NCBI RefSeq assembly: GCF_031179985.1
Contig: NZ_JAPSHJ010000014.1
Location: forward strand, 1-64,000
Reading direction: 5' to 3'
DNA: 64,000 nucleotides
From: Arthrobacter sp.
GTDB lineage: Bacteria; Actinomycetota; Actinomycetes; Actinomycetales; Micrococcaceae
Part shown: piece after piece, positions 2,116 to 24,654 of the stretch
How the letters are laid out: each line of letters opens with the position of its first letter
Position numbering within the stretch: position 1 is the first letter of the stretch
Notes under the pieces: generated by a model
What the model saw: only the letters and a program-made list of their open reading frames with translations
Told to the model about the DNA's origin: nothing
Database searches by the model: none
Program-made: the position numbers and the translations under genes

Positions 2116-3006
2116 ATGACTTCAAGCAACGTTGCTTCGGGCGCCGCAGCAGAGCCGTACAAGGCCGCCGGTTCCCTTTCCGGCCGAACCATCCTGATGT
2201 CCGGTGGAAGCCGCGGGATCGGTTTGGCCATTGCCCTGCGCGCCGCCAGAGACGGTGCCAACATCGCGCTGATGGCCAAGACAGGGACGCCCCATGCAAA
2301 GCTGGAAGGCACTGTTTTCAGTGCCGCGGATCAGCTGGTGGAAGCCGGTGGCCAAGCGTTGCCCATCGTTGGGGACGTCAGGAACGACGACGACGTCGCG
2401 GGCGCCGTTGATGCCGCCGTCGAGCGGTTCGGCGGGATCGACGCAGTGATCAACAATGCCTCGGCCATTGACCTCTCAAGCACCGACGCCATTGATATGA
2501 AGCGCTACGACCTGATGCAGGACATCAATGTCAGGGGCACGTTCCTGCTGTCCAAGCTGGCCCTTCCGGCGTTGCGCCGCTCCGATAACGGCCACATCCT
2601 GACGCTGTCTCCGCCCTTGAACCTTGATCCGAAATGGGCCGGCATGCACTTGGCGTACACCATGGCCAAGTATGGGATGAGCCTCACCACACTTGGTCTC
2701 GCAGAAGAACTCAAAGCAGACGGTATCAGCGTCAATTCACTGTGGCCGCGGACCCTCATTGATACCGCTGCCATCCGGAACATGCCCGGTGGCAGCCAGT
2801 TGGTCCAGGCGGCCCGTGGTCCCGGAATCGTCGCCGATGCTGCCCATGCGGTGCTGACCGGAAGCAATTCAGTGTCTGGTTCCGCTTCCCGGAGCGGAAA
2901 TTTCTACACAGACGAGGAAGTCCTGATTGCCGCCGGAGTCACGGACTTTTCCCCTTACAGCCTTGGTGCGCCTGAGAACCGGCTTGTTCCTGACATTTTC
3001 CTTTGA
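2116..3006 (+). CDS. HSDL2-like short-chain dehydrogenase/reductase
   Basis: NAD(P)-dependent SDR of 296 residues, close in layout to hydroxysteroid dehydrogenase-like protein 2 (HSDL2). The Rossmann glycine motif reads SGGSRGIGLAIA near residue 30, with the NNAS motif about 85 residues later. Active-site elements are the Ser in LSPPLNL and YTMAK (YxxxK). The stretch GANIALMAKTGTPHAKLEGT and the C-terminus ending VPDIFL match the HSDL2 layout. HSDL2 proteins are linked to lipid metabolism, but the substrate is not established. The position opposite an acyl-CoA carboxylase supports a lipid role. A perfect palindrome and a leaderless-type promoter lie just upstream. Confidence 0.85.
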   Translation: MTSSNVASGAAAEPYKAAGSLSGRTILMSGGSRGIGLAIALRAARDGANIALMAKTGTPHAKLEGTVFSAADQLVEAGGQALPIVGDVRNDDDVAGAVDAAVERFGGIDAVINNASAIDLSSTDAIDMKRYDLMQDINVRGTFLLSKLALPALRRSDNGHILTLSPPLNLDPKWAGMHLAYTMAKYGMSLTTLGLAEELKADGISVNSLWPRTLIDTAAIRNMPGGSQLVQAARGPGIVADAAHAVLTGSNSVSGSASRSGNFYTDEEVLIAAGVTDFSPYSLGAPENRLVPDIFL

Positions 3007-3044
3007 GCCTGGCGCGCGGAGGCGCCGCCGCGGTGGCAACTCGA

Positions 3045-3050
3045 TAGGAT
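3045..3050 (+). promoter_or_regulatory. -10 hexamer TAGGAT before birA
   Basis: TAGGAT ends 6 nt before ATG 3057, with no ribosome binding site between them. The spacing is the same as at the SDR gene, which suggests a leaderless birA transcript. Confidence 0.45.
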
Positions 3051-3056
3051 TCAGCT

Positions 3057-4049
3057 ATGGAAGCCCCCCAGTCGGATAACAGCCAGGAACCCGTTGACTT
3101 TCCAGAGCACGCCGCACGGGAAGCCGAGCGCAAAGGCCTGGACCGGACAGCGCTGGTAAATGAGGATTTCCTGGCCGCCACTGGAATTCCGCGGATCACG
3201 GTGGTGGATTCCACCGGCTCTACGAATGCCGATCTGCTGGAAGCAGTCAGTGCTGACCCGCGGTCCTGGCCAGACCTTTCTGTATTGACGACCGAGCACC
3301 AGACCGCCGCCCGGGGACGGCTTGGCCGCAGCTGGGAAGCCCCGCCGCTGAGCTCAGTGTTGGTCTCAGTGGTCCTCCGGCCTGTGAACGCGGAGGGCCG
3401 TCCGCTGCCCACCCAGAGCTACTCCTGGTTCTCGCTCCTCGGGGCCCTGGCCCTGCGCGAGGCGCTCCTGGAGACGGCCGGCATCCCTGCCGAACTTAAG
3501 TGGCCCAACGACGTCATAGTCCGCGGACGAAAGATCGCCGGGATTTTGGCCCAGCTGGGCCCGATGGGGGATGCGGGCGTGCCTCCTGTTGTTCTGGGAA
3601 CCGGACTCAACGTCACGTTGACCCAGGAGGAGCTTCCCGTTCCCACCGCTACGTCTGTCTTGCTCGAAGAGGCCCAAACCGTAGACCGCACGGTTCTGCT
3701 GAAAGGCTACCTTTCCCGGTTCGCCACCTTGTACCGCAGCTTCTGCAACGCCGACGGCGACCCCGCTGCAGGGATGGCGGGTGGGCCTTCCCTGCACAAG
3801 CGGGTGCAGGGCGTTCTGGTGACGTTAGGAAAGCAGGTGCGCGCTCAACTGCCCGGGGATCACGAGATTATCGGCCATGCCACACGGCTTGACGAGTATG
3901 GATCCCTTCTTGTGGTTGACGCTGCTTCACATGAGCATGTGGTGACCGCCGGCGACGTCGTTCACCTCCGTCCCTGGACTCCGCCAGGGCAAGACGGTTC
4001 GAAAGAGTCAAGCGGTTCGCGGGGCCCGACCGAGAGCGGTTATGCGTAG
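3057..4049 (+). CDS. birA: Biotin--[acetyl-CoA-carboxylase] ligase
   Basis: Makes biotinyl-AMP and transfers biotin to the carrier subunit of acyl-CoA carboxylases. The BPL/LplA catalytic domain starts around residue 40: DSTGSTNADLLE, then the biotin-binding loop ARGRLGRSWEAP and the conserved KWPNDVIVRGRKIAGIL. A small C-terminal SH3-like domain follows (residues about 255-310). There is no N-terminal HTH, so this is a group I enzyme and not a BirA-type repressor, as usual in Actinobacteria. The C-terminal 20 residues are low in complexity. It overlaps the next gene by 8 bases and lies close to the carboxylase subunits it would serve. Confidence 0.92.
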   Translation: MEAPQSDNSQEPVDFPEHAAREAERKGLDRTALVNEDFLAATGIPRITVVDSTGSTNADLLEAVSADPRSWPDLSVLTTEHQTAARGRLGRSWEAPPLSSVLVSVVLRPVNAEGRPLPTQSYSWFSLLGALALREALLETAGIPAELKWPNDVIVRGRKIAGILAQLGPMGDAGVPPVVLGTGLNVTLTQEELPVPTATSVLLEEAQTVDRTVLLKGYLSRFATLYRSFCNADGDPAAGMAGGPSLHKRVQGVLVTLGKQVRAQLPGDHEIIGHATRLDEYGSLLVVDAASHEHVVTAGDVVHLRPWTPPGQDGSKESSGSRGPTESGYA

Positions 4050-4680
4050 ACAGCTGTTGCCGGGTGAACAGGTGATAGTGGTCACGCGGCCTCAGCCCAG
4101 GACTTTGATTATCCCGGCCGCACTCTTCATCGCAGTCCCTGCAGTGGGTGCCTTCGCAATGGCATGGATCGTCAAAGGGGAACCTGCGAGGATGTTTCCA
4201 GTCGTCACGTCCGCTTGGACGTTTTGGCTGGTGGCTGCGTGCATCTTGCTTGTCGCCTGGGTTCTCTGCGGGTACTGCCTTCCGCGCACTCTGCGGTGGC
4301 AGTCAACGCGCTACACACTGACCAGTCAGCGCATAGTTGCCAAGTATGGAATGTTGCGGCGGAGGGAATGGCAGGTGTCCCTTGCCGCTATTCGGCAGGT
4401 CTGGGTGGTTCAGTCGGTACTTCAACGCATATTGCGTTCAGGGAATATATCCTTGGATACCGGGCATCATGATCCAGCGGTGCTGGAGGACGTTCCGGAG
4501 GCGGGGAAGTTCCGTGATTTTGTCCTTGAGGCCATTGACGAACTGCCGCCGGCGTCGGTCCTGGTAGAAGAGGACAGGCCCGGAGACGGGCTCGAGGACG
4601 TGGACAGACGCTGGGAGGGCCGTGAACGACACCGGCCCTGGAGACCGAGAGAAGGTGGAAGAGATGAACGCTGGCAGTGA
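4042..4680 (+). CDS. PH domain-containing membrane protein
   Basis: 212-residue protein with two hydrophobic segments (about residues 22-43 and 55-78) followed by a bacterial PH-like (bPH2/YdbS type) domain. The domain carries the usual YTLTSQRIVAKYGMLRRRE and PLAAIRQV-like strands, here LAAIRQVWVVQSVLQRI. The C-terminal tail is Arg-rich and charged (DRRWEGRERHRPWRPREGG). It overlaps birA by 8 bases and the cyclase gene by 17, so the three genes are one transcription unit. The function of this subfamily is unknown. A membrane-anchored adaptor is likely, and a link to the cyclase encoded next to it is inference. Confidence 0.8.
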   Translation: MRRQLLPGEQVIVVTRPQPRTLIIPAALFIAVPAVGAFAMAWIVKGEPARMFPVVTSAWTFWLVAACILLVAWVLCGYCLPRTLRWQSTRYTLTSQRIVAKYGMLRRREWQVSLAAIRQVWVVQSVLQRILRSGNISLDTGHHDPAVLEDVPEAGKFRDFVLEAIDELPPASVLVEEDRPGDGLEDVDRRWEGRERHRPWRPREGGRDERWQ

Positions 4681-5983
4681 GCACACTGAAGCTGTGCCAT
4701 TGGCATCTGCGCAGACTCAGCCACCCGGAGAGATTCCTGAATCGGCAGAATCACAGGAACGCGGAGAAGCGCGGGAACCGGAGGAATCCATTGAACCGGT
4801 GGTGGAGGCTGCCACCATTGAAGACGCGGTCCTTGAAACGGCCCCTGACTCGCCGTTCGCCAAGCCTGCTCCTGAGCGGGGTCCTCAAATGGGCGTGGAA
4901 CCTCTCCGCGCCCCGCAGGATCCCCCAGCCACAGGCACTTTCTCGGCCGAGCGCCTGGCGGCAAAGGCCTTGGAGGCCCGGCTGCTGGGCGGCGAGCGAA
5001 AGCTACGGCGGCGCGAAGTTGCAGCAGGTGCAGGGCTCTCCTTGCTGTCGGCACGCAAGCTCTGGAGGGCGCTGGGCTTTCCGAATCTCGGCGACGAGGA
5101 CGTCGCCTTTACTGAACGGGACCAGGCTGCCCTCTCCACCGTTGTTGATCTTGTCCGCACCGGAAAGCTGACGGAAGAGGCGGCTATTTCGGTGACGAGG
5201 TCCATCGGTCAGATGACAGACCGCATGGTGGTCTGGCAGATCGAAGCCCTCGTGGAAGACATGGTCCATCAGCAGGGAGTGCCGGACGCCGTCGCTCGCA
5301 AACGCCTGGTCAATGAACTTCCCGCCCTGGTGGACGCCCTCGAGGAAATGCTGGTGTACTCGTGGCGCCGCCAGCTCAACGCCGGCGTTCAAAGGTTGGC
5401 CGTCCGTGCCGAAGCCGGCCTGCAGGCCAGCGAAGAAGGCCGCGAAGGGGATGAAGACGACGCGCCATTGCCCTTGGCCCGTGCCGTCGGCTTTGCCGAC
5501 TTGGTCTCCTATACGAGCCTCTCCCGCCGGATGAACGAAAAAACTCTCGCCCAGCTTGTGCAGCGTTTTGAGAACAAGTGCGCTGAAATCATTTCCGTCG
5601 GTGGTGGCAGGCTCGTGAAGACCGTGGGCGACGAAGTCCTGTACATCGCCGAGACCCCGGCCGCGGGCGCAGAAATCTCCCTGGCGCTTGCGGAAGCTTT
5701 CACCCAGGATGAGATTCTGCCGGAAGCCAGGGTGTCCCTGGTCTGGGGCCGGATACTGTCCCGCTTGGGCGACATTTACGGACCGACTGTGAATCTGGCG
5801 GCACGCCTTACCGCACTGGCGGACCCCGGTACTGTGCTGGTGGATTCCGTGACGGCTGCTGCTTTGGACAGCGACGAACGGTTCGTGCTGGTCCCGCAGC
5901 CTGCGGAGACCGTACGTGGTTTCGGCGAAATCCTTCCGGTACTGCTTTCGAGGGGAAGCGGCCGCGGCCTGGTCCTGGACTAG
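4664..5983 (+). CDS. Class III adenylate cyclase with N-terminal regulatory domain
   Basis: Adenylate cyclase producing cAMP. After about 90 low-complexity Glu/Pro-rich residues comes a helical regulatory domain, here about 95-260, of the type that autoinhibits mycobacterial Rv1264. The catalytic domain begins at VGFADLVSYTSL; its first metal Asp lies in FADLV and the second in KTVGDEVLYI. The Lys in that motif and the Thr in YGPTVNLAARL fit the purine-recognition pair of class IIIb adenylate cyclases, and N and R of VNLAAR are the transition-state residues. ATG 4664 is preferred to the upstream GTG 4622 because GAGAAGG lies about 8 nt before it. The protein appears soluble, with no membrane segment. 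Confidence 0.85.
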   Translation: MNAGSEHTEAVPLASAQTQPPGEIPESAESQERGEAREPEESIEPVVEAATIEDAVLETAPDSPFAKPAPERGPQMGVEPLRAPQDPPATGTFSAERLAAKALEARLLGGERKLRRREVAAGAGLSLLSARKLWRALGFPNLGDEDVAFTERDQAALSTVVDLVRTGKLTEEAAISVTRSIGQMTDRMVVWQIEALVEDMVHQQGVPDAVARKRLVNELPALVDALEEMLVYSWRRQLNAGVQRLAVRAEAGLQASEEGREGDEDDAPLPLARAVGFADLVSYTSLSRRMNEKTLAQLVQRFENKCAEIISVGGGRLVKTVGDEVLYIAETPAAGAEISLALAEAFTQDEILPEARVSLVWGRILSRLGDIYGPTVNLAARLTALADPGTVLVDSVTAAALDSDERFVLVPQPAETVRGFGEILPVLLSRGSGRGLVLD

Positions 5984-6077
5984 GTCTGGTCCTGGGCAAC
6001 GCCGGTCCCTGCCCGGGCTGTCCTATTCATACAATTGATGGTCTTATAGGATGGTCGGATCCGTGCCGTTGTGCTGA

Positions 6078-6130
6078 CCGAAGCGATGTCTGTCAGGCGC
6101 AGGGGAAGTACTCCCCATCGCCGGCTTTGG
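6078..6130 (+). promoter_or_regulatory. Candidate structured leader of the giant surface protein gene
   Basis: The 271-bp gap 5984-6254 has no gene. It holds nested inverted repeats: CCGAAGC (6078) pairs with GCTTTGG (6124) allowing one G-U, GATG with CATC inside, and GGGGA with TCCCC around a 5-nt loop. A separate TCCTAT/ATAGGA pair flanks 6021-6051. From about 6180 the strand becomes T/G-rich. I cannot assign a riboswitch class. Confidence 0.35.
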
Positions 6131-6254
6131 AATGCTTGGGTAGGCTATGGCGGGTAACGGAGAGCCCTGTATCGGGTCCGTCTTGTCTTTTATGGTCTTT
6201 GGTTGATCTTGTGCTGCTTTTGGTGGCTTCTTATTGCGGGGGAATTGTAGAGCT

Positions 6255-9200
6255 GTGACACATCTGTTCGGCAGGTCTGGGTCTCGTCGGCGCCGCAGTG
6301 GGTTTTTTACCGGCACTGTTTTTGCGGTGGCTGGTGCTGCGTTGGTGGTAGGTGCTGTGGTTTACCCGGGATTTAAAACCACTGAGGTGGAGTTGAACGA
6401 CGGCGGCGTATGGGTCGTCAGCAAGTCCCGGAATGCTGTGGGGCGGCTGAATTATCCGTCGCGGGTCCTGGACGGGGCAGTGACGCCGGCAAGCACCACC
6501 TTTGACGTTTTGCAGAGCGCCGGGGATGTCTTTGTCGATGACCCCACGGGTTCCACCCTGAACCAGGTGTCGGCTGCCAACATGCGTCTGGGTGGGGACA
6601 AGCAGCTCCCTGGGTCGGCTGACGTCAGTTTTGGCCGCGGTGTTCTTTCAGTGACTGATCCTGGCAAGGGGACGGTGTGGGCGTTGTCGCCGTCCACAGT
6701 CAACGGTTTTGATGAGGAGTCCAGCGAGCCGGTGGTGGTGGGCTCGCAGGGTTTGGTGTCGGCGGTGGGGGCTGATGACCGGATTTACAGTGCTGATCCG
6801 AAGACTGGCAGGGTTTCGGTGACGTCGGTGGATGCTGAGGGGGTGTCCACGGGGGTTGAGGAGAGCACGTGGGAGGCTCTGAAGGGCGCAGGGGATCTGC
6901 AGTTGGCTGTGGTGGGGGATCAGCCGGTGGTGTTGGATGCTGCACGGGGGAAGCTGTTTTTGCCGGGTGGGCGTGAGTTGGCGTTGGCGGATGCGAAGGA
7001 CGCGAAGCTGCAGCAGAGTGGTCCTGCTGCTGATGCTGTGGCGGTGGCCACTCCGAAGGCGTTGTTGTTGCAGCCGCTGGGCGGTTCGACGGCGAAGACG
7101 GTGACCTTCAATGGTGAGGGTGTGCCGGCTGCTCCTGTGCAGTTGGGTGGTTGTGTGCATGCTGCGTGGTCGGGGGCGAATAAGTATGTTCGTGAGTGCG
7201 CCAATGATGCTGATGACCGCAATATCGATGTTCCCAAGGCCAGTGCGTCGCCGGAGTATGTGTTCCGGGTGAACCGGGATCTGGTGGTTCTTAATGATGT
7301 GAATTCGGGCAATGTGTGGCTGGTGAACCAGAACATGCAGCTGGTGAACAACTGGGACGACGTCGTCCCACCCAAGAATGAATCCGATGAGCAGGACAAG
7401 GACTCAGCGGACAACAACACCATCAACATCCTGCCTGACCGGACCAAGCCGAACCGCCCGCCGGAAACCAAACCGGACGCGTTCGGCGTCAGGCCGGGAC
7501 GCACCACCATCCTGCCAGTGCTGGACAATGATTCAGACCCGGACGGCGACGTCCTCACCGCCGCTGTTGGAGCGTCCGGCCCTAAGACAGGGAACCTGGA
7601 GAGTATTTACGGCGGAACAGCATTCCAGGTCAGTGTTCCGGCCGATGCCAAACCGGGCGTGGAAGCCTTTGACTACAACGCTTCGGACGGGCGGGGACTC
7701 TCCGCGGGTGGAAGCATCACGCTTAACGTTGTGGGTCCGGACGAGAACCGTCCCCCGGTCTTCAAGCGCGGCGAACCTACCACCATGCTGGTGGAACAGG
7801 GGAAAACGGTCAGCCAGAACATCCTGACGGACTGGATGGATCCCGACGGTGATGACCTCGTACTCATGGATGCGAAGGCGGACAACGACCAGGACCAGGT
7901 CAAGGTGCGGCGGGACGGACTCCTGACCTACCAGGACTCAGGAGCTGCCGCAGGCAAGAAAAACGTTACGGTGACCATCTGGGACGGCCGTGCCACAGTT
8001 ACCGGCAAGGTTGTGATCAACGTCCAGCCTCCTGGCGCCCTGGCCCCGGTGGTGAACGCTGACCATGTCACCGCCGTCGTCGGCCAGGACCTGGTGATCG
8101 CGCCGCTGAAGAACGACGTCGACCCCAACGGCGGCGCCCTGAGGCTCGCCCAGGTGGAGGCTTCCGGTCCTGCCGAGCTTGGACCCGTCACTGACGGTGG
8201 CACATTTACTTTCCGCAGCGGGACGCCAGGGCCGGTTTACCTGACGTATATAGCCAGCAACGGTCCCCAAAGCAGCCAGGGCCTGATCCGTGTCGATGTT
8301 GAATCGGGGAAGGACACCGGTAATCCTGTGGCTGTCCACGACGTCGCCCTCATGCCCGTGGGCGGCAGCGTGCTGCTGGACCCGCTCGCGAACGACTCCG
8401 ATCCTTCCGGGGGAGTGCTGGTGCTGCAGTCGGTATCCATGCCCGAAAACTCCACAGCCTCAGTGAGCGTCATCGACCACAGCGTCCTGCGCATCACCGA
8501 CCTTGTGGGCACCAAGGATCCCTTTATTTTCAGTTACACCATGTCCAACGGAAAAAAGTCTGCCACGGGCAGCGTCTCCGTTGTTCCTGTCCCTGCGCCC
8601 GCCGTCGTTGAAGCACCGCAGCCCAAGCCGGACGAAGTGAACGTACGCGTCAACGACGTCGTGACCATCCCCGTACTGGATAACGACACCCACCCGCAGG
8701 GCGAAAAGCTCACAGTTGATCCTGTGTTGCCGCAAGAGGTTCCCGCGGAGGACGGGAAGAGCTTCGTGTCGGAGAATTCCCTTCGGTTCATTGCCGGGAG
8801 CCAGCCAAAGACCGTCCGCGCCATCTACAACGCCGTCGACCCCCAGGGCCAGAAGAGTGCCGCAGCGGTCACCATCCACATCCTGCCCCTTGAAGGGGCA
8901 GAGAACTCACGTCCGCAGCCGCGGAACCTGACGGCGAGGGTGGTTGCTGCCGGTTCAGTTCGGATTCCGGTGCCCCTGGACGGGATAGACCCCGACGGCG
9001 ATTCCGTACAACTTACGGGCATCGACAGTTCGCCCAACATGGGCACGGCCACGGTCGGCAGCAACTTCATCGACTTTACGGCGGCGGGAGACGGCGCGGG
9101 GACCGACACCTTCCGCTACAAAGTGGTGGACCGCCAGGGTGCCGTGAACACCGGCACCGTGACCATCGGTATTGCTCCGCGAGGGGACACCAACCAGAAA

Positions 9201-12200
9201 CCCACGCCTGTGGATGACGAAGTCAAGGTGCGCCCGGGACGCCAGATAGCCGTTGATGCCACCGGCAATGACAGTGATCCCGACGGGGACCTCATCCGCA
9301 TCCTGACCGATGGTATCGAGGCAGATCCCGCACTGCAGGCCACTGTCAGCAAGCAGAGCGGCCGGATCATCCTGCTCGCACCCTCCGCCGAGGGCACAGT
9401 CAATGTCGGTTACACGATTGCAGACGATCGGGATGCGTCGGCGAAAGCCTCCATTAGCGTCTTAGCGGACAACGAGGTACCCCTCAAGGCACCTATCGCC
9501 CGCGATGACCGTGTCACCTCCGCGCAGACGTTGGGCAAGACCGCCGTCGACGTTCCCGTGCTGAAAAACGATGAAGATCCGGACGGTGTCGGGGAAAACC
9601 TGAAAGTCACCGCCCAGGCCGCGACGGCAGCTCCCGGAACCGAAGGCAACATGGTTGTGCAGCTCACCGAGCAGCCACAACTCATTCCCTACGAGGTGGA
9701 GGACGTCGACGGGCAAAAGTCTACGGCCATCATCTGGGTGCCAGGAATTGGCCAGCAGGTTCCCACGCTGTCCAAGGATGAAGTCCTCGAAGTGGTCGCC
9801 GGGCAGTCGGCCACGGTCAACCTGAATGAGTGGGTGAAGGTCCGTGAGGGGCACACGCCACGGCTGACGCAACGTGACCGCGTCAAGCTCATCGGCGCTG
9901 ATGGGAGTGACCCCATCGTCGGTAACAACTCAGAATTGAAATATACGGCCGGGGCGGACTACGTCGGACCGGGTTCCATCAGCTTTGAAGTCACGGACGG
10001 GTCCGGTCCCGACGATCCGGCCGGCCTCAAATCCACGCTCAGCATCCGGACCAAGGTGCTGCCCGACCCCAACCGGAACAACCCGCCAACGTTGCTCGGA
10101 GGGTCCGTGGATGTACCCAAGGGGGATTCCGCCACCACCGACCTGGGCAAACTGACAGCAGATCCGGACCAGGACGATCTCGAAAACATGAAGTACGAGA
10201 TTGTGGGCGGCAACCCCATTGGTTTCAACACCACCATCGACGGCAAGATATTGAAGGTTTCGGGCACTGACGGCGGAGCCATCGGCACTGCTGGAGCCGT
10301 GCAGGTGAAGGCAAAAGACCCAAGGGGTCTGGAAGCCACCGCCACGTTCCAGCTTGCTGTTACGGCGTCCGACCGGCCAAAGCCGGTGGCCAATGACGAT
10401 CTTGAACCCAACGCGGCGGCCGGAAAACCTGTCACCGTAAACGTCTTGGGCAACGACTCCAATCCGTTCCAGGATTCTCCTCTGAAGATCATTTCCGCTC
10501 TGACGGAGACCGGCCAAGGCAGCGCCGTGGCCAACGGCGATTCGGTGACAGTGACGCCTGCCCCAGGGTTTACCGGAACACTGGTGGTGTCCTACACCGT
10601 GGCCGACAAGACGGAGGAACCGTCCCGCAACGCCACTGCGCGGATCCGCTTGACTGTCAAGGACAAACCCGTTGTGCCTACCACACCGCAGGCCCAAAGC
10701 GTCGGCGACCAAACTGCATTGCTGACGTGGCAGGCACCGGCGGACCGCGGCTCACCCATCACCAAATACACGGTGTATGGTGAAGGCGGCTTCCAGCAGG
10801 ACTGCCCTGCAAACTCCTGCACCCTCACCGGGCTGACCAACAACACCAAGTACCATTTCCAGGTGACGGCGACCAACGCCATCGATGAATCCGACAGGTC
10901 CCCGGCGTCGGCTGAAGTCCGTCCGGACGTCAAACCGGACACACCGCTTGCGCCGACGCTGAAGTTCGGAGACAAGGAACTGACGGTGACTTGGGTGCCG
11001 CCGGCGAGCAAGGGTTCACCGGTGAAGTCCTATGACCTGGAAATTTCCCCTGCACCCGCAGGGCAAAACGCCCAAATCCAGAACCTTACCGCGGCCAGCT
11101 ATGTTTGGAAGGGCCTTCAGAACGGCGTGGCCTACAAGCTGCGTGTCCTGGCGCGCAATGATGCCAAGGAACCATCGGAATGGAGCGCCTATTCGGCCGC
11201 CGAAGTACCTGCCGGCGTCCCGGCAACCCCTGCGGCCCCTGCGGCCTCGCAGGCAGGTTCCTTAGGGGCCGAGAGCCAACTGCAGGTCACTTGGACAGCC
11301 CCGGCCAACAATGGTGACGCAGTGTCCTCCTACACCCTCACTACGTGGCACGGGGGAGCTGCCGTGGCCAGTCAGCCTGTGACTTCGGGAACTTCCCAGA
11401 ACGTGAAAGTGGCCAACTCCGAAGCCGACTACACGTTCAGCGTCTCGGCCACCAACAAGGCAGGAACCAGCGGCGACAGCGCTCGTTCCGCACCCATCAG
11501 GGCCGCGGGCAAACCAGGCACCGTGAACAGCGGGACAGTAGCAGCGAACGGCAGATCAGGGCAGTTGGACGTCACATTCACCAGACTGAACGAGTCCCAG
11601 CGCAATGGCTCCCAGGAAACAGAAATCACCTACTCCTATTCCGCAAGCACCGGGCAGTCGGGGCCAATCGCAGCCGGAGGCGGCACGATCACCGGCCTTC
11701 CAAATGGGCGGGACATCACGATCAACATCATTGCCACCTCGACCAAGAACAGTGTCTCGGGTGACGGCAAGAACATCGGGACCGGAAATCCGTACGGACC
11801 TCCGGGTGCTCCGGCGGTCTCCGGGCGGACCTCGGCCAAGGGTGACTCTGCCGTTCACTGGACGTGGAGCCCCCCTAACAACGACAACGGCAGGGCCATT
11901 ACCAAATACGAAGTGAGCTACGAGAACGGCAATTGGACCAGCGTAGGCATGGACCGCAGCTACAGCCGCGACACCGGGGGATGGGATCGGCAGAAGAGAC
12001 TCGAGGTCCGGGCATGCTCGGTTGTTTGTGGCGGGGCTGACGCTGCAAACTCAACTTCCGGCTCGGATCCCACCCCGCCGCCTCCTGCATCCCAGATCCA
12101 AGTGGATGCCTCCAGCGTGCGGACCTGTCCGGGTCAGCCGGGCCGGCCGGACTCCTATCAGGACGGTTCACCGGCTTCCTGTGGTGTCGGCTGGGTCGAG

Positions 12201-12350
12201 CGGTCCTGGGGGAGGCTGACCATCGACTGCACCAAGGACATCTATGGAAACGGAACACCTTGGTACCGGCTCACGGAATCAGCCAAGAGTGGTTGGTACG
12301 TCAAGTCCACAACAGTCGATCTGTATGGTGCGAGGCCCGGCGGATGCTGA
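6255..12350 (+). CDS. Giant membrane-anchored Ig/cadherin-like and fibronectin type III protein
   Basis: Surface protein of 2031 residues, the probable end product of the locus. One N-terminal membrane segment (about 14-38) is followed by a propeller-like region to about 365 (repeats such as [11 protein letters not shown] and [13 protein letters not shown]) and a charged linker. About ten tandem Ig/cadherin-like repeats follow (about 395-1470), marked by DNDSDPDGD-type probable Ca-binding loops. Next are at least four FN3 domains from about 1475 ([69 protein letters not shown]). A Cys-rich, SH3-like cap ends in GGC. I prefer GTG 6255 to the track's TTG 6234 because GGGGGAA lies 10-11 nt upstream. 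Base composition changes sharply at about 7340. It corresponds in context to the fn3 gene of bifidobacterial PFNA clusters. Confidence 0.85.
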
Positions 12351-12461: not shown

Positions 12462-13433
12462 ATGACCATGACAACTGAGCAGGCCGCCTGGTTTGCAGGA
12501 ACATTCGAGAAGCTCGTTGCCAACGTCGGCCACGCCGTGCTCGGTAAAGCACACGTTATCCGTTTGACTTTTACGGCCATGCTCGCGGAAGGCCATGTGC
12601 TGTTCGAGGACGCCCCGGGCACTGGTAAGACGTCGCTGGCCCGGGCGTTGGCGGCGACCGTTCAAGGTTCAAACAACCGCATCCAGTTCACCCCGGATCT
12701 CCTGCCTTCGGATGTTACCGGCGTGACCATCTATGACCAGAAGACCCAAAAGTTTGAGTTCCATAAGGGGCCGATCTTCAACAACATCGTCCTCGCCGAC
12801 GAAATCAACCGCGCCTCGCCCAAGACCCAGTCCGCGCTCCTGGAGGTCATGGAGGAGTCCCGCGTGACGGTAGACGGCGTCACGTACGAGGCCGGGCGCC
12901 CGTTCATGGTGATGGCAACCCAGAACCCTATCGAGCAGGCGGGCACCTACCGCCTGCCGGAGGCACAGCTGGACCGGTTCCTCATGAAGACTTCCATCGG
13001 CTACCCTGACCACGCCTCAACTGTCCAGATCCTGGGTGGCAACAACCTTAAGGACCGGTCGAAGGACATTTCGCCGGTGATCACCACCCAGGCGATCGCT
13101 GACATGGCTGACCTGGCCGCCACCACCCACGTGGACACCGCCGTGCTCGAATACATCTCCCGGCTCTGCGAGGAGACCCGCAACGCCCCTGAGACCCGCC
13201 TGGGCGTCTCTGTGCGCGGGGCCTTGGCCATGGTTCGCGCGGCCAAGGTCTGGGCAGCAAGCCAAGGCCGGAATTTCGTTCTTCCGGACGACATCAAGGA
13301 CCTTGCCGGCGTCGTATGGACTCACCGCTTTGTGATGGACCCCGAGGCCGAATTCTCCGGAGCCACCCCCGAGGCAATTCTGGCGCGTGTGCTTGCCGAC
13401 GTGGCAGCTCCGCAGCAGCGCGCCAACGTTTAG
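12462..13433 (+). CDS. MoxR-family AAA+ ATPase
   Basis: MoxR proteins are AAA+ ATPases that act as chaperones in assembling or activating membrane or extracellular complexes, typically with a DUF58 partner. The Walker A motif is EDAPGTGKTSLA (about residues 47-58) and Walker B is IVLADEINRA. Sensor 1 reads ATQNPIEQ and the arginine-finger region is LPEAQLDRF. The length of 323 residues is normal. AAGGAAAAGGA precedes the ATG. It is followed by the DUF58 and transglutaminase-like genes, the classical MoxR/DUF58/TgpA triad, and corresponds to the aaa-atp gene of PFNA clusters. Confidence 0.93.
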   Translation: MTMTTEQAAWFAGTFEKLVANVGHAVLGKAHVIRLTFTAMLAEGHVLFEDAPGTGKTSLARALAATVQGSNNRIQFTPDLLPSDVTGVTIYDQKTQKFEFHKGPIFNNIVLADEINRASPKTQSALLEVMEESRVTVDGVTYEAGRPFMVMATQNPIEQAGTYRLPEAQLDRFLMKTSIGYPDHASTVQILGGNNLKDRSKDISPVITTQAIADMADLAATTHVDTAVLEYISRLCEETRNAPETRLGVSVRGALAMVRAAKVWAASQGRNFVLPDDIKDLAGVVWTHRFVMDPEAEFSGATPEAILARVLADVAAPQQRANV

Positions 13434-13484: not shown

Positions 13485-14834
13485 ATGTTCCGCAGCACTC
13501 CGTTAAACCGGCTTGCTGAACGCCTCCGGCGGTTCCTTCCCGCCGGGCAGTTGCTGCCCACAAAAAACAGAGGCAACCTCCTCCGTCCCTCCGCAGTCTG
13601 GACGGAAGCCCTCAGCACCGCCCAACTCGCGGTGGAGCCCGTCTGGCGCGTGGTCCGGGCGCAGTGGCTGCGCTTCGTCTGGCCTGTGCTCTCCATCGTC
13701 AGCGTGCTGGGCTGGTCCATTCTGGCTGGGTCCATCCTGCTGTGGGTGGTTGGGCAGTCCTTCGGCTGGCAGGAGGCCAAAGCAGCGGCCATAGCGGCCT
13801 TCGTGCTCTTCGTCATCGCCGTGGGATTTGTCCTTGGCAGGTCATCTTATGGGGTGATCCTGGACCTCACCCGCACCAGGGTGGCTGTTGGCGACAGTGC
13901 GGTAGGAAGCATCGCAGTATCAAACACCTCAGCCCGCCCGCTGTTGCCGGCTGCCCTTGAACTGCCGGTGGGCGCAGCGACCGCCATTTTCCACCTGCCG
14001 CGGATGAAACCCGCCCAGGTTCACGAGGATCTCTTCACTATTCCTACGGCACGGCGTGCGGTCATCGTTGTTGGCCCGGTGCGTTCCGTCCGGGCGGATC
14101 CCCTGCACCTGCTGCGGAGGCAGGTTCTGTGGACAGATCCTGAGGACCTTTATGTCCACCCCCGGACAGTGGCTTTGGCCGGATCGGCTGCCGGCTTTAT
14201 CCGTGACCTCGAAGGAATGCCCACCACTGACCTGTCAAGCGCCGACGTTTCCTTTCACGCGTTGCGCGACTATGTGCCTGGTGACGACAGACGCCATATC
14301 CACTGGAAGACGACGGCGCGGACCAACAAGCTGATGGTCCGCCAGTTCGAGGAGACGCGCCGCGCGCACCTGGCCATCTCCCTGTCCATCAACACGGACG
14401 AGTACGGTTCCGAGCATGAATTCGAGATGGCCATCTCAGTGGCTGCGTCCATTGGGCGCCAAGCCATCAGGGAGCAGCGTGAGCTTGATGTCCTCACCCA
14501 AAAAGGACCGCTCCGTTGCGAGACCGGCCGGAACATGCTTGACGACATGACCAGGATCGTTGGCACCCCCATGCGCAAGACTGCAGTGGACCTCGCCCGG
14601 ACGCTGGCCGACAAAGTCCCCAATGCTTCAGTCGTGTTCTTCATCGTTGGCAGCCAGGTCACCCCTGCCCAGCTGCGATCGGCGGCTGCATCCGTCCCTG
14701 CAGGCGTCCGCAGCCTGGCAGTTCGCCTTCAGCCCGGCGCCGCGCCCTCACGGGCCAACATAGCGGACCTGACTGTTCTCACCTTGGGAGACCTCTCGGA
14801 TCTGGCCATCGTCCTTAGAAAGGCAGCAGCATGA
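13485..14834 (+). CDS. DUF58 domain-containing membrane protein
   Basis: 449-residue partner of MoxR. Two adjoining membrane segments lie at about residues 65-120, followed by a beta-rich region. The DUF58 signature YVPGDDRRHIHWKTTARTNK with LMVRQFEE is at about 260-290, within a von Willebrand A-like C-terminal half. Role in the family: a membrane adaptor working with MoxR; no enzymatic activity is established. The last 4 bases overlap the start of the transglutaminase-like gene (ATGA). Confidence 0.9.
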   Translation: MFRSTPLNRLAERLRRFLPAGQLLPTKNRGNLLRPSAVWTEALSTAQLAVEPVWRVVRAQWLRFVWPVLSIVSVLGWSILAGSILLWVVGQSFGWQEAKAAAIAAFVLFVIAVGFVLGRSSYGVILDLTRTRVAVGDSAVGSIAVSNTSARPLLPAALELPVGAATAIFHLPRMKPAQVHEDLFTIPTARRAVIVVGPVRSVRADPLHLLRRQVLWTDPEDLYVHPRTVALAGSAAGFIRDLEGMPTTDLSSADVSFHALRDYVPGDDRRHIHWKTTARTNKLMVRQFEETRRAHLAISLSINTDEYGSEHEFEMAISVAASIGRQAIREQRELDVLTQKGPLRCETGRNMLDDMTRIVGTPMRKTAVDLARTLADKVPNASVVFFIVGSQVTPAQLRSAAASVPAGVRSLAVRLQPGAAPSRANIADLTVLTLGDLSDLAIVLRKAAA

Positions 14835-20141: not shown

Positions 20142-22050
20142 TTACAGCCCGGGGAGCTGGATCGGTGTTGTCCGGTCCGGCATGGCCGTATTGCTGCGTC
20201 CGGAGGCCGACCCCGCGCTGGTCCATTCCCTCTGGGGGCTGTTGGGAAATTCCCCCGAGGTCCATGAGGTCCTCCATGCTGTTACCAGTGCTTCCGGCGA
20301 ATCATTGGCTCAGATCCCGTCGTTCGGCATTGTGGACTTCACGCATTCCCTTCGCGTTTTCCTCCGCGGCGATATCGAGCTCACAGCCCACCTGACAGAG
20401 GGCCCTGTTGATCTCAACGGTCGTGATGTCACCACCTGGACTGAACGTCATCTGGCGGATCCACAGTGGTACACAGTGAAGGCTCCTGGCGGGAATGCCG
20501 GAGGCGCCGAGTTGCCGTTGGCCGATGGCGTTGTGCTGTTGCAAGGCCTGCGGATGGACCGTGAAGGGGTTTCTGCTGTGCAGGTTCCGCTGGCCAGGGT
20601 GCCCTCCGCGCTGCTGGCGGAACCCGATGTTCCCGAGCCCCAGCTCGTGGCAAGGCAACTGCCGGAACCGCCGGTCCAGACGCCGCAGGTGCCGGAACGG
20701 CCCGTAGAGGCTGTGCCGGAACTGGTGCCTGCTCCCGCCGTCGTGGTCCTCCCCGAAGACAACGTGCGCGAAGAGAACCTGCCGGAAGAAGACCTGCCGG
20801 AAGAGGACCTTCCCGAAGAGAACCTGCCGCAAGAGGACCTGCCGGAAGCGAACGCGCCGGAAGCAACCGATAAGGAAGCGGTTGATCACGGGGTCTCGCA
20901 GGAGACCGTGATGGGCATCCACGACGACGATGAAGAATATAATGACGACGTCGCCGACTCTGTTGAACCGGTTGAAGAACCTGATTCCGCCGCAGTCCTC
21001 TTTGTGCCCGAGGAGGTCGCGGCCGTCGAAATGACAGGCAGCTACGATCACCTCTGGGAAAAGACAGTGATGCGGAACATCGAGGATGCCGCTGTTCGGG
21101 TAGACCCGGATGCCGACGAGGCTGCCCAAGGGACAAGCGCTGGGCCTGCAGTGACCAGCAAGGAACCAGCAGAAGAGGTCCCTGAAGCAGCGGACCAACC
21201 TTTGGCAGTCTCCTTCCAAGAGCACGTCCAGGAGCCAGCCCAACAGCCTGCTGAGCCATCAGCCGCACCGCTCCAGCAGGGCGGTTTGATCGACTCGGTG
21301 CCTTGGCGCAGCGGTTCCGCGGCCTCCGGCTTGATGCCTCCTTCCTTTAGCGCACCGTCCAATCCCCAGCCGTCCAATCCACTGTTCATTGTGCCTTTCC
21401 GTGGGCAGCCGAACATGCCCGCGTCCGGCAATCGGTCCGAGCAGCCGCTCCCGGTGGTAGCGCCCGTCCTGCCGCTGGTGGACGACAGTGACCATGACGG
21501 TCAGACCATCATGAAAAGTGATCTGGCCGGAATGGCAGCAGCCGGCCAGGCTTCCGTCCCCGGCAACGGTGACGCGAACGGTGGCGGGACAGGGCCCAGG
21601 GTCCTCGCCCGCGTTTGCCCGCTAAACCACGCAAATCCTCCTACTCATTCCGAATGCTCCACGTGCCACCAGCCTCTTCCCGATGATGCAGTCCAGGTTC
21701 CGCGGCCTGCGCTGGGCCGGATGCGGGTGTCCACGGGCGAGCTGATAGATCTGGACCAGTCGATGATTGTGGGGCGGCAGCCTTCTGTTTCCCGTGTTCA
21801 GGGCGGAGTCATGCCCAGGCTCGTCCAGGTGGCCAGCCCGAGCGGAGACATCTCACGTTCCCACGTGGAGGTGAGGCTCGAGGGCTGGCACGTTATGTTA
21901 TGCGATCTGAAGGCCACGAACGGCACAGTCCTGGTCCGCGAGGGGCAATCTCCACGGCGGCTGGCTCAAGGTGAGATGGCCATTCTCCTGGACGGGGACA
22001 TCGCCGAACTCGGTGATGACATTTCCTTACGGTTTGAGGAGATCCGTTGA
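20128..22050 (+). CDS. Zinc-ribbon and FHA domain protein
   Basis: 640 residues. The N-terminal 150 residues (SYSPGSWIGVVRSGMAVLLR onward) form a compact domain I do not recognise. A long acidic low-complexity middle with pentapeptide repeats follows, then a zinc-binding motif VCPLNHANPPTHSECSTC (about 494-512) and a C-terminal FHA domain (about 530-640) with intact VGRQP, ISRSH and KATNGT. The track ORF starts at 19927, but that part reads Arg-rich in the PP2C gene's alternative frame. ATG 20128, preceded by GGGAGCAAGG, is the real start. It corresponds to fha of PFNA clusters and should read phosphothreonine marks. Confidence 0.82.
   Translation: MVSSSYSPGSWIGVVRSGMAVLLRPEADPALVHSLWGLLGNSPEVHEVLHAVTSASGESLAQIPSFGIVDFTHSLRVFLRGDIELTAHLTEGPVDLNGRDVTTWTERHLADPQWYTVKAPGGNAGGAELPLADGVVLLQGLRMDREGVSAVQVPLARVPSALLAEPDVPEPQLVARQLPEPPVQTPQVPERPVEAVPELVPAPAVVVLPEDNVREENLPEEDLPEEDLPEENLPQEDLPEANAPEATDKEAVDHGVSQETVMGIHDDDEEYNDDVADSVEPVEEPDSAAVLFVPEEVAAVEMTGSYDHLWEKTVMRNIEDAAVRVDPDADEAAQGTSAGPAVTSKEPAEEVPEAADQPLAVSFQEHVQEPAQQPAEPSAAPLQQGGLIDSVPWRSGSAASGLMPPSFSAPSNPQPSNPLFIVPFRGQPNMPASGNRSEQPLPVVAPVLPLVDDSDHDGQTIMKSDLAGMAAAGQASVPGNGDANGGGTGPRVLARVCPLNHANPPTHSECSTCHQPLPDDAVQVPRPALGRMRVSTGELIDLDQSMIVGRQPSVSRVQGGVMPRLVQVASPSGDISRSHVEVRLEGWHVMLCDLKATNGTVLVREGQSPRRLAQGEMAILLDGDIAELGDDISLRFEEIR
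20773..20862 (+). repeat. Six-unit 15-bp in-frame repeat (ENLPE/EDLPE)
   Basis: Six consecutive 15-nt units of the form GAGAACCTGCCGGAA encode ENLPE, EDLPE, EDLPE, ENLPQ, EDLPE and ANAPE variants in the acidic middle of the FHA protein. The last unit is the most diverged. Confidence 0.8.
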
Positions 22051-23891
22051 GTTCCAAACGTCCCCCCGCTCCACCACCCCGTATTCCCGGCTTCACCTAC
22101 GTCAGCCTCCTGGGCTCCGGCGGCTTTTCGGATGTGTACCTCTATGAACAGGACAGGCCCCGCCGCAAGGTGGCCGTCAAAGTTCTGCTTTCCGGCCTGA
22201 AAACTGATGGGGCCCGACGACGCTTTGAGTCTGAGGCCAACCTCATGGCTCAGCTGTCCTCGCACCCGTATATCGTGACCATCTTCGAAGCAGAAGTGAC
22301 CGACGACGGCCATTCCTATCTGGCCATGGAGTACTGTTCCAGGCCAAGTCTGGATATCAGGTACCGTCGTCAGCGTTTCAGCGTGGACGAAGTCCTCGCC
22401 GTGGGCATCCAGGTGGCCTCCGCCGTCGAAACCGCCCACCGTGCCGGCATCGCCCACCGGGACATCAAGCCCGCCAACATTCTGGTCACTGATTACAACA
22501 GGCCTGCCCTGACCGACTTCGGCATTTCAGGGACCCTGGGAAGCGACGCCGATGAGGACGCCGGGATGTCCATTCCCTGGTCCCCGCCGGAGCAGTTCCG
22601 GGACGGTCCGGTGGACGGCATCATGGTGGACGTTTGGGCGCTGGGAGCCACGCTGTACACCCTACTGGCCGGGCGGTCTCCCTTTGTCATGCCGGGTGCC
22701 GACAATTCCCAGCGTGAGCTGATTTCGCGTATCTCCAATATGCCGGTTCCACGGCTCGGCCGCGCCGACGTCCCTCAGTCCCTTGAGCTGGCATTGTCGA
22801 CGGCGATGGCCAAGTCCCCGACTTCCCGGTACTCCTCGGCTCACGCCTTTGCTCTTGCACTCCAGCGCATCCAGGCTGAACTGAACCTGTCCGTGACGCC
22901 CTTTGAGGTTTTGGAAGAGCCGCAGCACGACGACGGACACCCGGATGACGGCTTCGAAGAGACACGGGTTCGGAGCGTCGCTTCGATCGACCCCGAGTTG
23001 ACCGGCAGCGCTCCCACGTTCCCCGCACGTACCCGCCCCCTCGCCGGTGAACCGACCCGTCAGCCAGCCGGGCAGCCGATCGGGCCGAAGTCTCAGACGC
23101 CTGCTCCCTCGGTGGCTCCTCCACCTGCTTCCCAGGTACCGGGGCCACAGTTGTTCACGCCCAAACCCGAGGATCGTACGGAGGTTGGATGGCAGGTTCC
23201 CGGCACGGCTTACGCAGCGGGGAACACCACCGAACAGGACGATTCAGCCCAGGCAACTATGCTGCGCGGACCAAGGGCGGTAGCTCCGGCCCGGTCAGCT
23301 GACGGCCTTGGCCCACAGGCTGGCGCTGGCCCACAGGCTGGCGCTGGCCCACAGGCTGCCCCTGGACAGTACGCTGCACATCAGGACGTCCGGGATGATG
23401 ACTTGGCCGCCACGGTCAACCGGCCCCGGGCAATGGGAGCGGCAGATGCCGAGGAAGGTCCCGGGGACACCGGGAAACGGAACCTCTGGCTGGCAATCGC
23501 CGGTGGAACCATTCTGGTTGTGGCGATCATCCTCGGAATAACGTTGTCCCAGACGAGGCCCGAACCGCACGTAGTCGCTACTGAACAGTTCAGCCAGCCA
23601 CCCGCTGATCCCTTGGACGATGGCGTCGTTCCTGATGTCGAGAATTTGACGGCAGTCGATGGAGCACCGGGCAAGGTGATTTTCACGTGGACCAACCCCA
23701 GTCCGAAACCGGGCGATGTCTATAAATGGAACCTTGATGGCGGACCTGTCGAGTCCACGACTGAGACCAGGGCTGAGATTATTGCAAACCCGCCCGGAAA
23801 GTTCACGTGCATCTCGGTGATAGTAGTTCGTCAGGATGGCACTGCTTCGGCTGGACTGACCATGGGCTCACGCCTATGCCATTCACTCTAG
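22047..23891 (+). CDS. Membrane Ser/Thr protein kinase with FN3-like ectodomain
   Basis: 614-residue PknB-type kinase. The complete catalytic set is present: P-loop LGSGGFSDVYLY, VAVKVL lysine, catalytic loop HRDIKPANI (about 137-145), DFG (about 157), SIPWSPPEQF and DVWALG. A Pro/Gln/Gly-rich juxtamembrane linker contains an 18-bp repeat. One membrane helix (LWLAIAGGTILVVAIILGITL, about 478-498) leads to a 110-residue extracellular domain with FN3-like strands (KVIFTWTNPSPKPGDVYKW). The start is TTG in a TTGA overlap with the FHA gene, with GAGGAG 5-6 nt upstream. It corresponds to pkb2 of PFNA clusters and is the likely source of the marks read by the locus FHA domains. Confidence 0.92.
   Translation: MSSKRPPAPPPRIPGFTYVSLLGSGGFSDVYLYEQDRPRRKVAVKVLLSGLKTDGARRRFESEANLMAQLSSHPYIVTIFEAEVTDDGHSYLAMEYCSRPSLDIRYRRQRFSVDEVLAVGIQVASAVETAHRAGIAHRDIKPANILVTDYNRPALTDFGISGTLGSDADEDAGMSIPWSPPEQFRDGPVDGIMVDVWALGATLYTLLAGRSPFVMPGADNSQRELISRISNMPVPRLGRADVPQSLELALSTAMAKSPTSRYSSAHAFALALQRIQAELNLSVTPFEVLEEPQHDDGHPDDGFEETRVRSVASIDPELTGSAPTFPARTRPLAGEPTRQPAGQPIGPKSQTPAPSVAPPPASQVPGPQLFTPKPEDRTEVGWQVPGTAYAAGNTTEQDDSAQATMLRGPRAVAPARSADGLGPQAGAGPQAGAGPQAAPGQYAAHQDVRDDDLAATVNRPRAMGAADAEEGPGDTGKRNLWLAIAGGTILVVAIILGITLSQTRPEPHVVATEQFSQPPADPLDDGVVPDVENLTAVDGAPGKVIFTWTNPSPKPGDVYKWNLDGGPVESTTETRAEIIANPPGKFTCISVIVVRQDGTASAGLTMGSRLCHSL
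23310..23358 (+). repeat. 18-bp in-frame tandem repeat in the kinase linker
   Basis: GGCCCACAGGCTGGCGCT occurs twice in full and once in part (through GGCCCACAGGCTG), encoding GPQAGA repeats between the kinase domain and the membrane helix. Confidence 0.8.
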
Positions 23892-23949: not shown

Positions 23950-24654
23950 ATGGGGGATCTAGCAATAGATTTCTGTGGTGAGTGGCATGAGCCCTCAGAC
24001 GAGGATGTCTTCAGCATCGGCCGCGAGGGTGACCTTGAGGTGGACGACAACCCCTACCTGCATCGGAGATTCCTCCAGATAGCCCATTATGACGGGATCT
24101 GGTGGCTCAGCAACGTCGGCAGCATGCTCTCCGCCACCATCGCGGACGGTTCGGGCGGAATGCAGGCCTGGCTTTCACCGGGGGCCCGGATCCCGCTCGT
24201 CTTCAGCCACACCAACGTGATCTTTACCGCTGGTCCAACGACGTACGAGTTTGCCGTGCACCTGAAGACTCCGTCTTTCCGGCAGGAGGTCCGCGACGAC
24301 GAGAGCGGAGGGGATACCACCATCGGGCCCGTGGTCTTCACAGACTCCCAGAAGGCGCTGATCGTGGCCCTGGCTGAACCGATGCTCCGCCGTGAAGGAA
24401 CAGGCTTCAGCGCCATTCCATCGTCGGCCGCGGCAGCAAAAAAACTGGGCTGGGCCCTGACCAGATTCAACCGAAAGCTGGACAACGTGTGCGACAAACT
24501 GGACCGGGTCGGCGTGGCCGGACTGCGCGGCGGAGGCGGGAAGCTGGCCACCAACAGGCGCGCCCGTCTCGTGGAACACGCCGTGACATCCCATTTGGTA
24601 ACTGTCGATGACCTGTATTTGATCGAAAAGATGAGGGGAGTCGAAGAAGGGTGA
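23950..24654 (+). CDS. Degenerate FHA-like protein with C-terminal helical (HTH-like) domain
   Basis: 234 residues, family not recognised by name. The first 100 residues resemble an FHA beta-sandwich (DVFSIGREGDLEVDDNPYLHRRFLQIAHYDGIWWLSNVGS), but the usual SxxH is replaced by YLHRR and the Asn-Gly turn is absent. Phosphothreonine binding is therefore doubtful. A C-terminal domain (about 120-225) is helical and basic (KKLGWALTRFNRKLDNVCDKL, then GGGGKLATNRRARLVEHAV) and looks like a winged-helix/HTH module. AAGGAGG lies 9 nt before the ATG. The stop overlaps the EssC-type gene (GTGA). It could be a regulator or an adaptor for the ATPase. Confidence 0.6.
   Translation: MGDLAIDFCGEWHEPSDEDVFSIGREGDLEVDDNPYLHRRFLQIAHYDGIWWLSNVGSMLSATIADGSGGMQAWLSPGARIPLVFSHTNVIFTAGPTTYEFAVHLKTPSFRQEVRDDESGGDTTIGPVVFTDSQKALIVALAEPMLRREGTGFSAIPSSAAAAKKLGWALTRFNRKLDNVCDKLDRVGVAGLRGGGGKLATNRRARLVEHAVTSHLVTVDDLYLIEKMRGVEEG

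What the first reader, a model, noticed from the sequence alone, without database searches (positions are those of the whole stretch)
6180..7380. Sharp composition and codon-use break inside the giant gene
From about 6180 to 7340 the coding strand is rich in G and T (many GGT, GCT, GTG, TTG codons). After about 7350 it turns C-rich with NNC codons like the rest of the locus. The break coincides with the end of the propeller-like domain and the start of the linker before the Ig/cadherin repeats. The front segment, with its leader, may have been exchanged by recombination.
Basis: seen in the sequence. Interest (0 to 1): 0.6.

Follow-up and report, generated by a model that had tools for sequence, protein, structure and literature searches.

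The report
Gene conversion driving one-strand G/T bias
The front of a giant surface-protein gene of soil Arthrobacter is swamped with G and T on one DNA strand because twin neighbouring copies of the gene keep overwriting each other there, and this copying is lopsided, possibly because these bacteria's unusual mismatch-repair enzyme sees only G/T mispairs.

Summary
The break is real: third-position G/T (K3) is 0.78 before and 0.45 after codon 380 (window 7347, interval 7323-7356; z=13 against the gene's own codon use). It is not a foreign front. In 42 Arthrobacter/Pseudarthrobacter/Paenarthrobacter genomes the giant gene is a tandem pair ~6.3 kb apart. The two fronts are often 100% identical for ~1-1.2 kb while the rest is ~60% identical. 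K3 tracks A/B identity: ~0.43 below 80% identity, 0.86 at 100%. In the most converted fronts 82% of Leu codons are TTG (tails of homogenised pairs 4%). Pairs that do not exchange (Paenarthrobacter) show no bias, and species that lost one copy decay back to normal codons; the window is one of these. In a closed relative (G031) the strongest G/T-extreme run of the 2 Mb read was a 3x780-bp array in a gene on the opposite strand; there the non-coding strand is G/T-rich. So the favoured strand follows the replication fork, not the coding strand (two loci, one arm). Best reading: concerted evolution with a strand-asymmetric conversion drive, most simply explained by NucS, which repairs only G-G, G-T and T-T mismatches. 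The bias-conversion link is strong; the NucS step is inference.

The parts
6059..6103 (.). junction left by loss of tandem copy A: upstream side matches the region before copy A of the nearest relative, downstream side matches the region before copy B
   Evidence: blastn to A. rhizosphaerae L175: window 2674-6059 = L175 1-3399 (before A); window 6103-11515 = L175 9682-15096 (B)
6181..7347 (+). G/T-rich front; in relatives this is the tract kept identical between the tandem copies (leader, membrane anchor, propeller-like domain)
   Evidence: K3 0.78 vs 0.45; tandem-identity tracts of 1.0-1.2 kb in relatives, 100% identical in G049
6234..12350 (+). giant membrane-anchored Ig/cadherin/fn3 protein gene, 2038 aa, copy B of the tandem pair
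   Evidence: ORF; Pfam Big_9, Cadherin_4/5, fn3; tail groups with copy B of G049 in the tree
6303..6376 (+). probable N-terminal membrane anchor ([24 protein letters not shown])
   Evidence: hydrophobic stretch in the translation; inference
6420..7400 (+). beta-propeller-like domain (modelled stretch)
   Evidence: AlphaFold model mean pLDDT 62, all-beta; best PDB match 1l0q YVTN propeller, E 5e-8 but TM only 0.49
7323..7356 (+). composition break
   Evidence: change-point fit, best at 7347
7357..12350 (+). linker plus Ig/cadherin and fn3 repeats, normal codon use, not homogenised between copies (~60% nt identity A vs B in relatives)
12462..13433 (+). MoxR-type AAA ATPase
   Evidence: Pfam AAA_3
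13485..14834 (+). DUF58 protein
   Evidence: Pfam PF01882
14831..17458 (+). transglutaminase-like protein
   Evidence: Pfam Transglut_core
22047..23891 (+). serine/threonine protein kinase of the same cluster
   Evidence: Pfam Pkinase

Best explanation
The G/T-rich front is the trace of long-running gene conversion between two tandem copies of the giant gene. SHOWN: in relatives the fronts of copies A and B are homogenised within each genome while the tails are not, and excess G/T on the coding strand occurs where and in proportion to how the copies are homogenised; it decays after a copy is lost, as in the window. SHOWN at two loci of one closed genome: the G/T-rich strand is the one running 5'->3' with the replication fork, whichever strand is coding. 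INFERRED: the conversion is directional. A single strand from one copy anneals to the lagging-strand template of the other. If the pairing puts G or T opposite G or T, NucS sees it and restores the template; if it puts A or C opposite A or C, NucS is blind and the new base passes.
For: Tandem pairs ~6.3 kb apart in most congeners that carry the gene. A/B fronts near 100% identical over ~330 codons, tails ~60%; K3 0.88 in identical windows vs 0.42 in diverged ones, rho 0.80; 42 pairs, rho 0.83, K3 rising 0.40/0.43/0.44/0.67/0.77/0.81/0.86 with identity class. Within genes, only homogenised segments are G/T-rich in G020, G027, G016. Front tree groups A+B by species, tail tree separates A from B. 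Codon reversal: Leu TTG 82% in the six most converted fronts vs 4% in homogenised-pair tails; NNY ends in T 85% vs 14%. Polarised third-position changes: lineages with two copies A/C->G/T 0.25-0.55 per site and reverse 0.015-0.09 (slowly converting G057 excepted); single-copy lineages reverse 0.11-0.38. G/T excess also at codon positions 1+2 outside Leu/Arg: 0.543 vs 0.488/0.519. Independent locus: 3x780-bp array (99.9%) in a minus-strand gene of G031, coding K3 0.05-0.23 inside vs ~0.4 outside, change at the array edge; dnaA position puts it and the giant gene on the arm replicated in the + direction. NucS in 12/12, MutS in 0/12. NucS repairs only G-G, G-T, T-T in vivo (PMC11551767) and inhibits homeologous recombination (PMC5290159); oligonucleotides recombine mainly with the lagging-strand template in mycobacteria (PMC11551744).
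Against: Nothing here tests NucS directly; every genome examined has it, so there is no contrast. Only one genome with a head-on array was seen and no left-arm array. One 98%-identical 111-bp array in G031 (1049413-1050005) shows no bias (K 0.50; K3 0.38). Dispersed IS copies follow element orientation. Within-genome correlation in partially homogenised pairs is positive in 11 of 14 but p=0.07. Polarisation is by parsimony, and convergent gain of G/T can mislead it.
Confidence: 0.6

Rival explanations
1. Selection for recombination: G/T-rich (TGG-like) DNA is preferred by RecA, so the front is kept G/T-rich because frequent A/B exchange is useful.
For: RecA is most stable on TGG repeats and TG-rich DNA (PMC3763553); G/T-rich, Chi-like sequence can also be fork-oriented (own knowledge); bias appears only where exchange occurs.
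Against: Would need selection on nearly every synonymous site, at two unrelated loci, and also moves amino-acid-changing positions. Decay after copy loss fits both models.
Confidence: 0.17
2. Strand-asymmetric mutation: repeated exposure of the lagging-strand template as single-stranded DNA in the repeat raises C->T and A->G deamination there.
For: Right strand; NNY ends in T 85%, NNR in G 97.5%.
Against: Transitions alone would push four-fold C to T, but four-fold sites go to G (0.70) more than T (0.23) from C 0.50, G 0.35, T 0.08, i.e. G+C is largely kept while the strand flips.
Confidence: 0.1
3. The front came by horizontal exchange from an organism with G/T-rich codons.
For: Sharp break and separate phylogeny.
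Against: Fronts of A and B group by host species, the closest front is in the nearest relative by tail as well, and the bias varies with A/B identity and decays in single-copy lineages.
Confidence: 0.02
4. Translation-related codon choice in the 5' part of the gene (ramp, slow folding of the propeller, mRNA structure).
For: The bias is in the 5' part and ends at a domain boundary.
Against: The same domain has normal codons in Paenarthrobacter and in several single-copy species; in a minus-strand gene the coding strand is biased the opposite way.
Confidence: 0.02

Closest known systems
Concerted evolution of duplicated genes by gene conversion in prokaryotes (tuf, mtrA, rRNA operons; PMC6053082, PMC4632066, PMC8022953)
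   Same: paralogous copies within a genome are more alike than orthologues between species, over part of the gene
   Different: strong one-strand G/T bias of the converted tract; the words GC content, biased, strand and mismatch do not occur in PMC6053082
GC-biased gene conversion
   Same: recombination drives base composition of the exchanged tract
   Different: axis is G+T versus A+C on one strand, not G+C versus A+T; third-position G+C does not rise, and the strand appears to depend on fork direction
NucS/EndoMS mismatch repair of Actinobacteria (PMC11551767, PMC5290159)
   Same: its G-G/G-T/T-T specificity would give exactly a G/T-versus-A/C asymmetry
   Different: a composition drive has not been described for it in the papers found; a preprint on M. 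tuberculosis paralogues suggests reduced NucS repair in recombination and a T>C excess (PMC13061034)
PFNA gene cluster of bifidobacteria (pkb2, fn3, aaa-atp, duf58, tgm; PMC8430577)
   Same: giant fn3-bearing protein, MoxR ATPase, DUF58 and transglutaminase side by side, plus serine/threonine kinase, phosphatase and FHA genes
   Different: kinase is last, not first; giant gene usually in tandem pair; propeller-like front and long Ig/cadherin stretch

Membership tests
Concerted evolution by gene conversion | paralogues within a genome more similar than orthologues between species | tested here: met
   front tree groups A with B by species in Arthrobacter/Pseudarthrobacter, tail tree does not
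Concerted evolution by gene conversion | non-reciprocal transfer limited to a tract, both copies kept | tested here: met
   1.0-1.2 kb identical tracts, both copies open, tails ~60% identical
Biased gene conversion | one class of base favoured in exchanging tracts and released when exchange stops | tested here: met
   K3 versus A/B identity; polarised changes in two-copy versus single-copy lineages
Biased gene conversion | transmission advantage of the favoured base measured in individual conversion events | not testable with these tools
   needs marked strains
GC-biased gene conversion | rise of G+C in the exchanged tract | tested here: not met
   third-position G+C is about 0.73 in homogenised fronts and 0.86 in their tails
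NucS-driven process | NucS present, MutS absent | tested here: met
   12/12 and 0/12
NucS-driven process | bias lost without NucS | not testable with these tools
   all genomes checked have NucS, so no contrast was available
NucS-driven process | favoured strand is the lagging-strand template on both arms | tested here: inconclusive
   two loci on one arm of G031 agree; left arm could not be fetched
PFNA cluster | core genes kinase, fn3, MoxR ATPase, DUF58, transglutaminase | tested here: met
   Pfam matches
PFNA cluster | fixed order beginning with the kinase | tested here: not met
   kinase at 22047-23891, after the other core genes

The most novel reading that the evidence does not exclude
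Bacteria that use NucS instead of MutS carry a general, replication-oriented form of biased gene conversion that pushes any long-lived tandem duplicate toward G/T on the lagging-strand template, up to ~97% of third positions in its strongest stretches, leaving a readable record of which sequences exchange and which way the fork passes.
Probability: 0.4. Interest if true: 0.9.

Novelty: new variant of a known kind. Interest (0 to 1): 0.75.

Why it matters
Biased gene conversion is known mainly as a G+C bias. A G/T-versus-A/C, strand-specific version would be a new axis, strong enough to invert codon preference. It would give a genomic footprint for NucS action during recombination, whose role there is unsettled (PMC13061034 suggests it is reduced). 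It would also warn that strand-composition and codon outliers in Actinobacteria may mark gene conversion rather than horizontal transfer.

Tried and rejected
Horizontal donor: rejected by trees and by dependence on A/B identity. Amino-acid composition: rejected by recoding. Codon optimisation or 5' ramp: rejected by the mirror-image minus-strand array. Pure deamination: does not give the observed G excess at four-fold sites. Collapse of the pair in the window's assembly: the junction lies upstream of the shared tract, and the own-genome search found only one other, distant copy. E. coli yeeJ as a MutS control: its repeats are not homogenised, so uninformative. rRNA spacers: G/T-rich in G031 (0.66) and not in E. 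coli (0.49-0.52), but confounded by RNA function. Most A/C-rich run in G031 (112701-113650): a Thr/Pro repeat, explained by amino acids, coding K3 0.52.

Full report
OBSERVATION. The front of the giant gene (window 6234-12350) is G/T-rich on its coding strand. A change-point fit puts the break at 7347 (7323-7356), K3 (G or T at third position) 0.78 before and 0.45 after; recoding the same amino acids with the tail's codons gives 0.461 +/- 0.024. The run starts near 6180, before the start codon.

THE PROTEIN AND LOCUS. A short hydrophobic anchor, a propeller-like domain (AlphaFold mean pLDDT 62; best fold match the YVTN propeller of an archaeal surface-layer protein, E 5e-8, TM 0.49; no sequence match in PDB), then Big_9/cadherin and fn3 repeats. 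Downstream are MoxR, DUF58, transglutaminase, FHA, phosphatase and kinase genes, a relative of the PFNA cluster of bifidobacteria. Relatives retrieved by name are Arthrobacter, Pseudarthrobacter and Paenarthrobacter.

TANDEM PAIRS. Of 61 genomes searched, 48 carry the front, and many carry two copies about 6.3 kb apart. Some draft assemblies have contig ends or fragments at the front (G014, G024, G037, G046), as expected of a near-identical repeat; this is inference. In 28 pairs the copies are typically 97-100% identical over codons ~60-380 and ~60% identical after it, with several partly homogenised pairs; Paenarthrobacter-type pairs are mostly 50-80% identical in the front. Front trees group A with B within species; tail trees separate A from B.

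BIAS FOLLOWS HOMOGENISATION. Over 42 pairs mean K3 rises from 0.40-0.44 in windows under 80% identical to 0.67, 0.77, 0.81 and 0.86 at 80-90, 90-95, 95-99 and 100%. In G020, G027 and G016 only the homogenised segments are strongly biased. Over all 14 partially homogenised pairs the within-gene correlation is positive in 11 but not significant (p=0.07). In the six most converted fronts Leu is TTG in 82% and NNY ends in T in 85%; tails of homogenised pairs have 4% and 14%. Positions 1 and 2, Leu and Arg excluded, also shift (0.543 vs 0.488 in non-exchanging pairs and 0.519 in low-K single-copy species). These comparisons are not corrected for phylogeny.

DIRECTION AND DECAY. Polarised by sister and outgroup, lineages with two copies gain G/T at 0.25-0.55 per A/C site and lose it at 0.015-0.09; G057, a slowly converting pair, loses it at 0.23. 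Single-copy lineages lose it at 0.11-0.38. The window's gene is copy B. Copy A is gone, with the junction at 6059-6103, and the front is decaying: 35 changes from G/T to A/C against 4 in the other direction since the split from G049 (A. rhizosphaerae). Not all single-copy genomes are low: some keep K3 of 0.8-0.9, as a recent loss or a collapsed draft assembly would give.

STRAND. In 2 Mb of the closed genome G031 the strongest G/T-extreme run (450-base windows) is a 3x780-bp array at 733935-736286; one Thr/Pro repeat (112701-113650) is more extreme in the opposite sense. The array lies in a minus-strand gene: coding K3 is 0.05-0.23 inside and about 0.4 outside, so the plus strand is the G/T-rich one. 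dnaA at 3,543,086 puts both this array and the giant pair on the arm copied in the plus direction, if the terminus lies opposite. In 16 genomes with dnaA located on the same replicon, the giant gene is co-directional with the fork, so the giant gene alone cannot separate transcription from replication; the array can, but it is a single case. A 111-bp array on the same arm shows no bias.

MECHANISM (inference). NucS is present and MutS absent in all 12 genomes checked. NucS repairs G-G, G-T and T-T (PMC11551767), restrains homeologous recombination (PMC5290159), and in mycobacteria oligonucleotides recombine mainly with the lagging-strand template (PMC11551744). If single strands from one copy anneal to the lagging-strand template of the other, an A/C template base meeting a strand that carries G/T information gives an A/C-to-A/C mispair that NucS does not see, while the reverse gives a G/T-to-G/T mispair that is repaired to the template. 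The net drift is toward G/T on the lagging-strand template, which is the strand observed. RecA preference for TG-rich DNA (PMC3763553) and single-strand deamination are the main rivals. The second does not explain the high G at four-fold sites.

NOVELTY. Concerted evolution and biased gene conversion are known. Literature searches of the held library returned no paper recognised as describing a G/T strand-biased conversion drive or linking NucS to one; most subscription journals are not held, and only a few papers were read.

Noticed in passing
G031 contig C1:1049413-1050005: Five-copy 111-bp array in an Arg/Gly-rich reading frame just after an rRNA operon, 98% identical, with no G/T bias: an exception to the pattern or a young array.
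   Followed up: partly
G031 rRNA operons (around 277535 and 548731): rRNA leaders and 16S-23S spacers are G/T-rich (0.66-0.69), unlike E. coli rrnB (0.47-0.52).
   Followed up: partly
genome G000, contigs C34 and C107: Two full-length dnaA matches in the window's assembly (contamination estimate 3.3%), so it may mix two related strains.
   Followed up: no
L052 (G058), about 3250-10800: Copy A of the pair is split into two open frames (369 and 1695 aa): a decaying copy.
   Followed up: no
window 24651-29138: FtsK/SpoIIIE-FHA protein of 1495 aa resembling a type VII secretion ATPase, shortly after the kinase of the cluster.
   Followed up: no
L002 (G000 contig C17:126849-132758): Distant single paralogue of the giant gene (47% identity) with normal codon use in the front.
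   Followed up: partly
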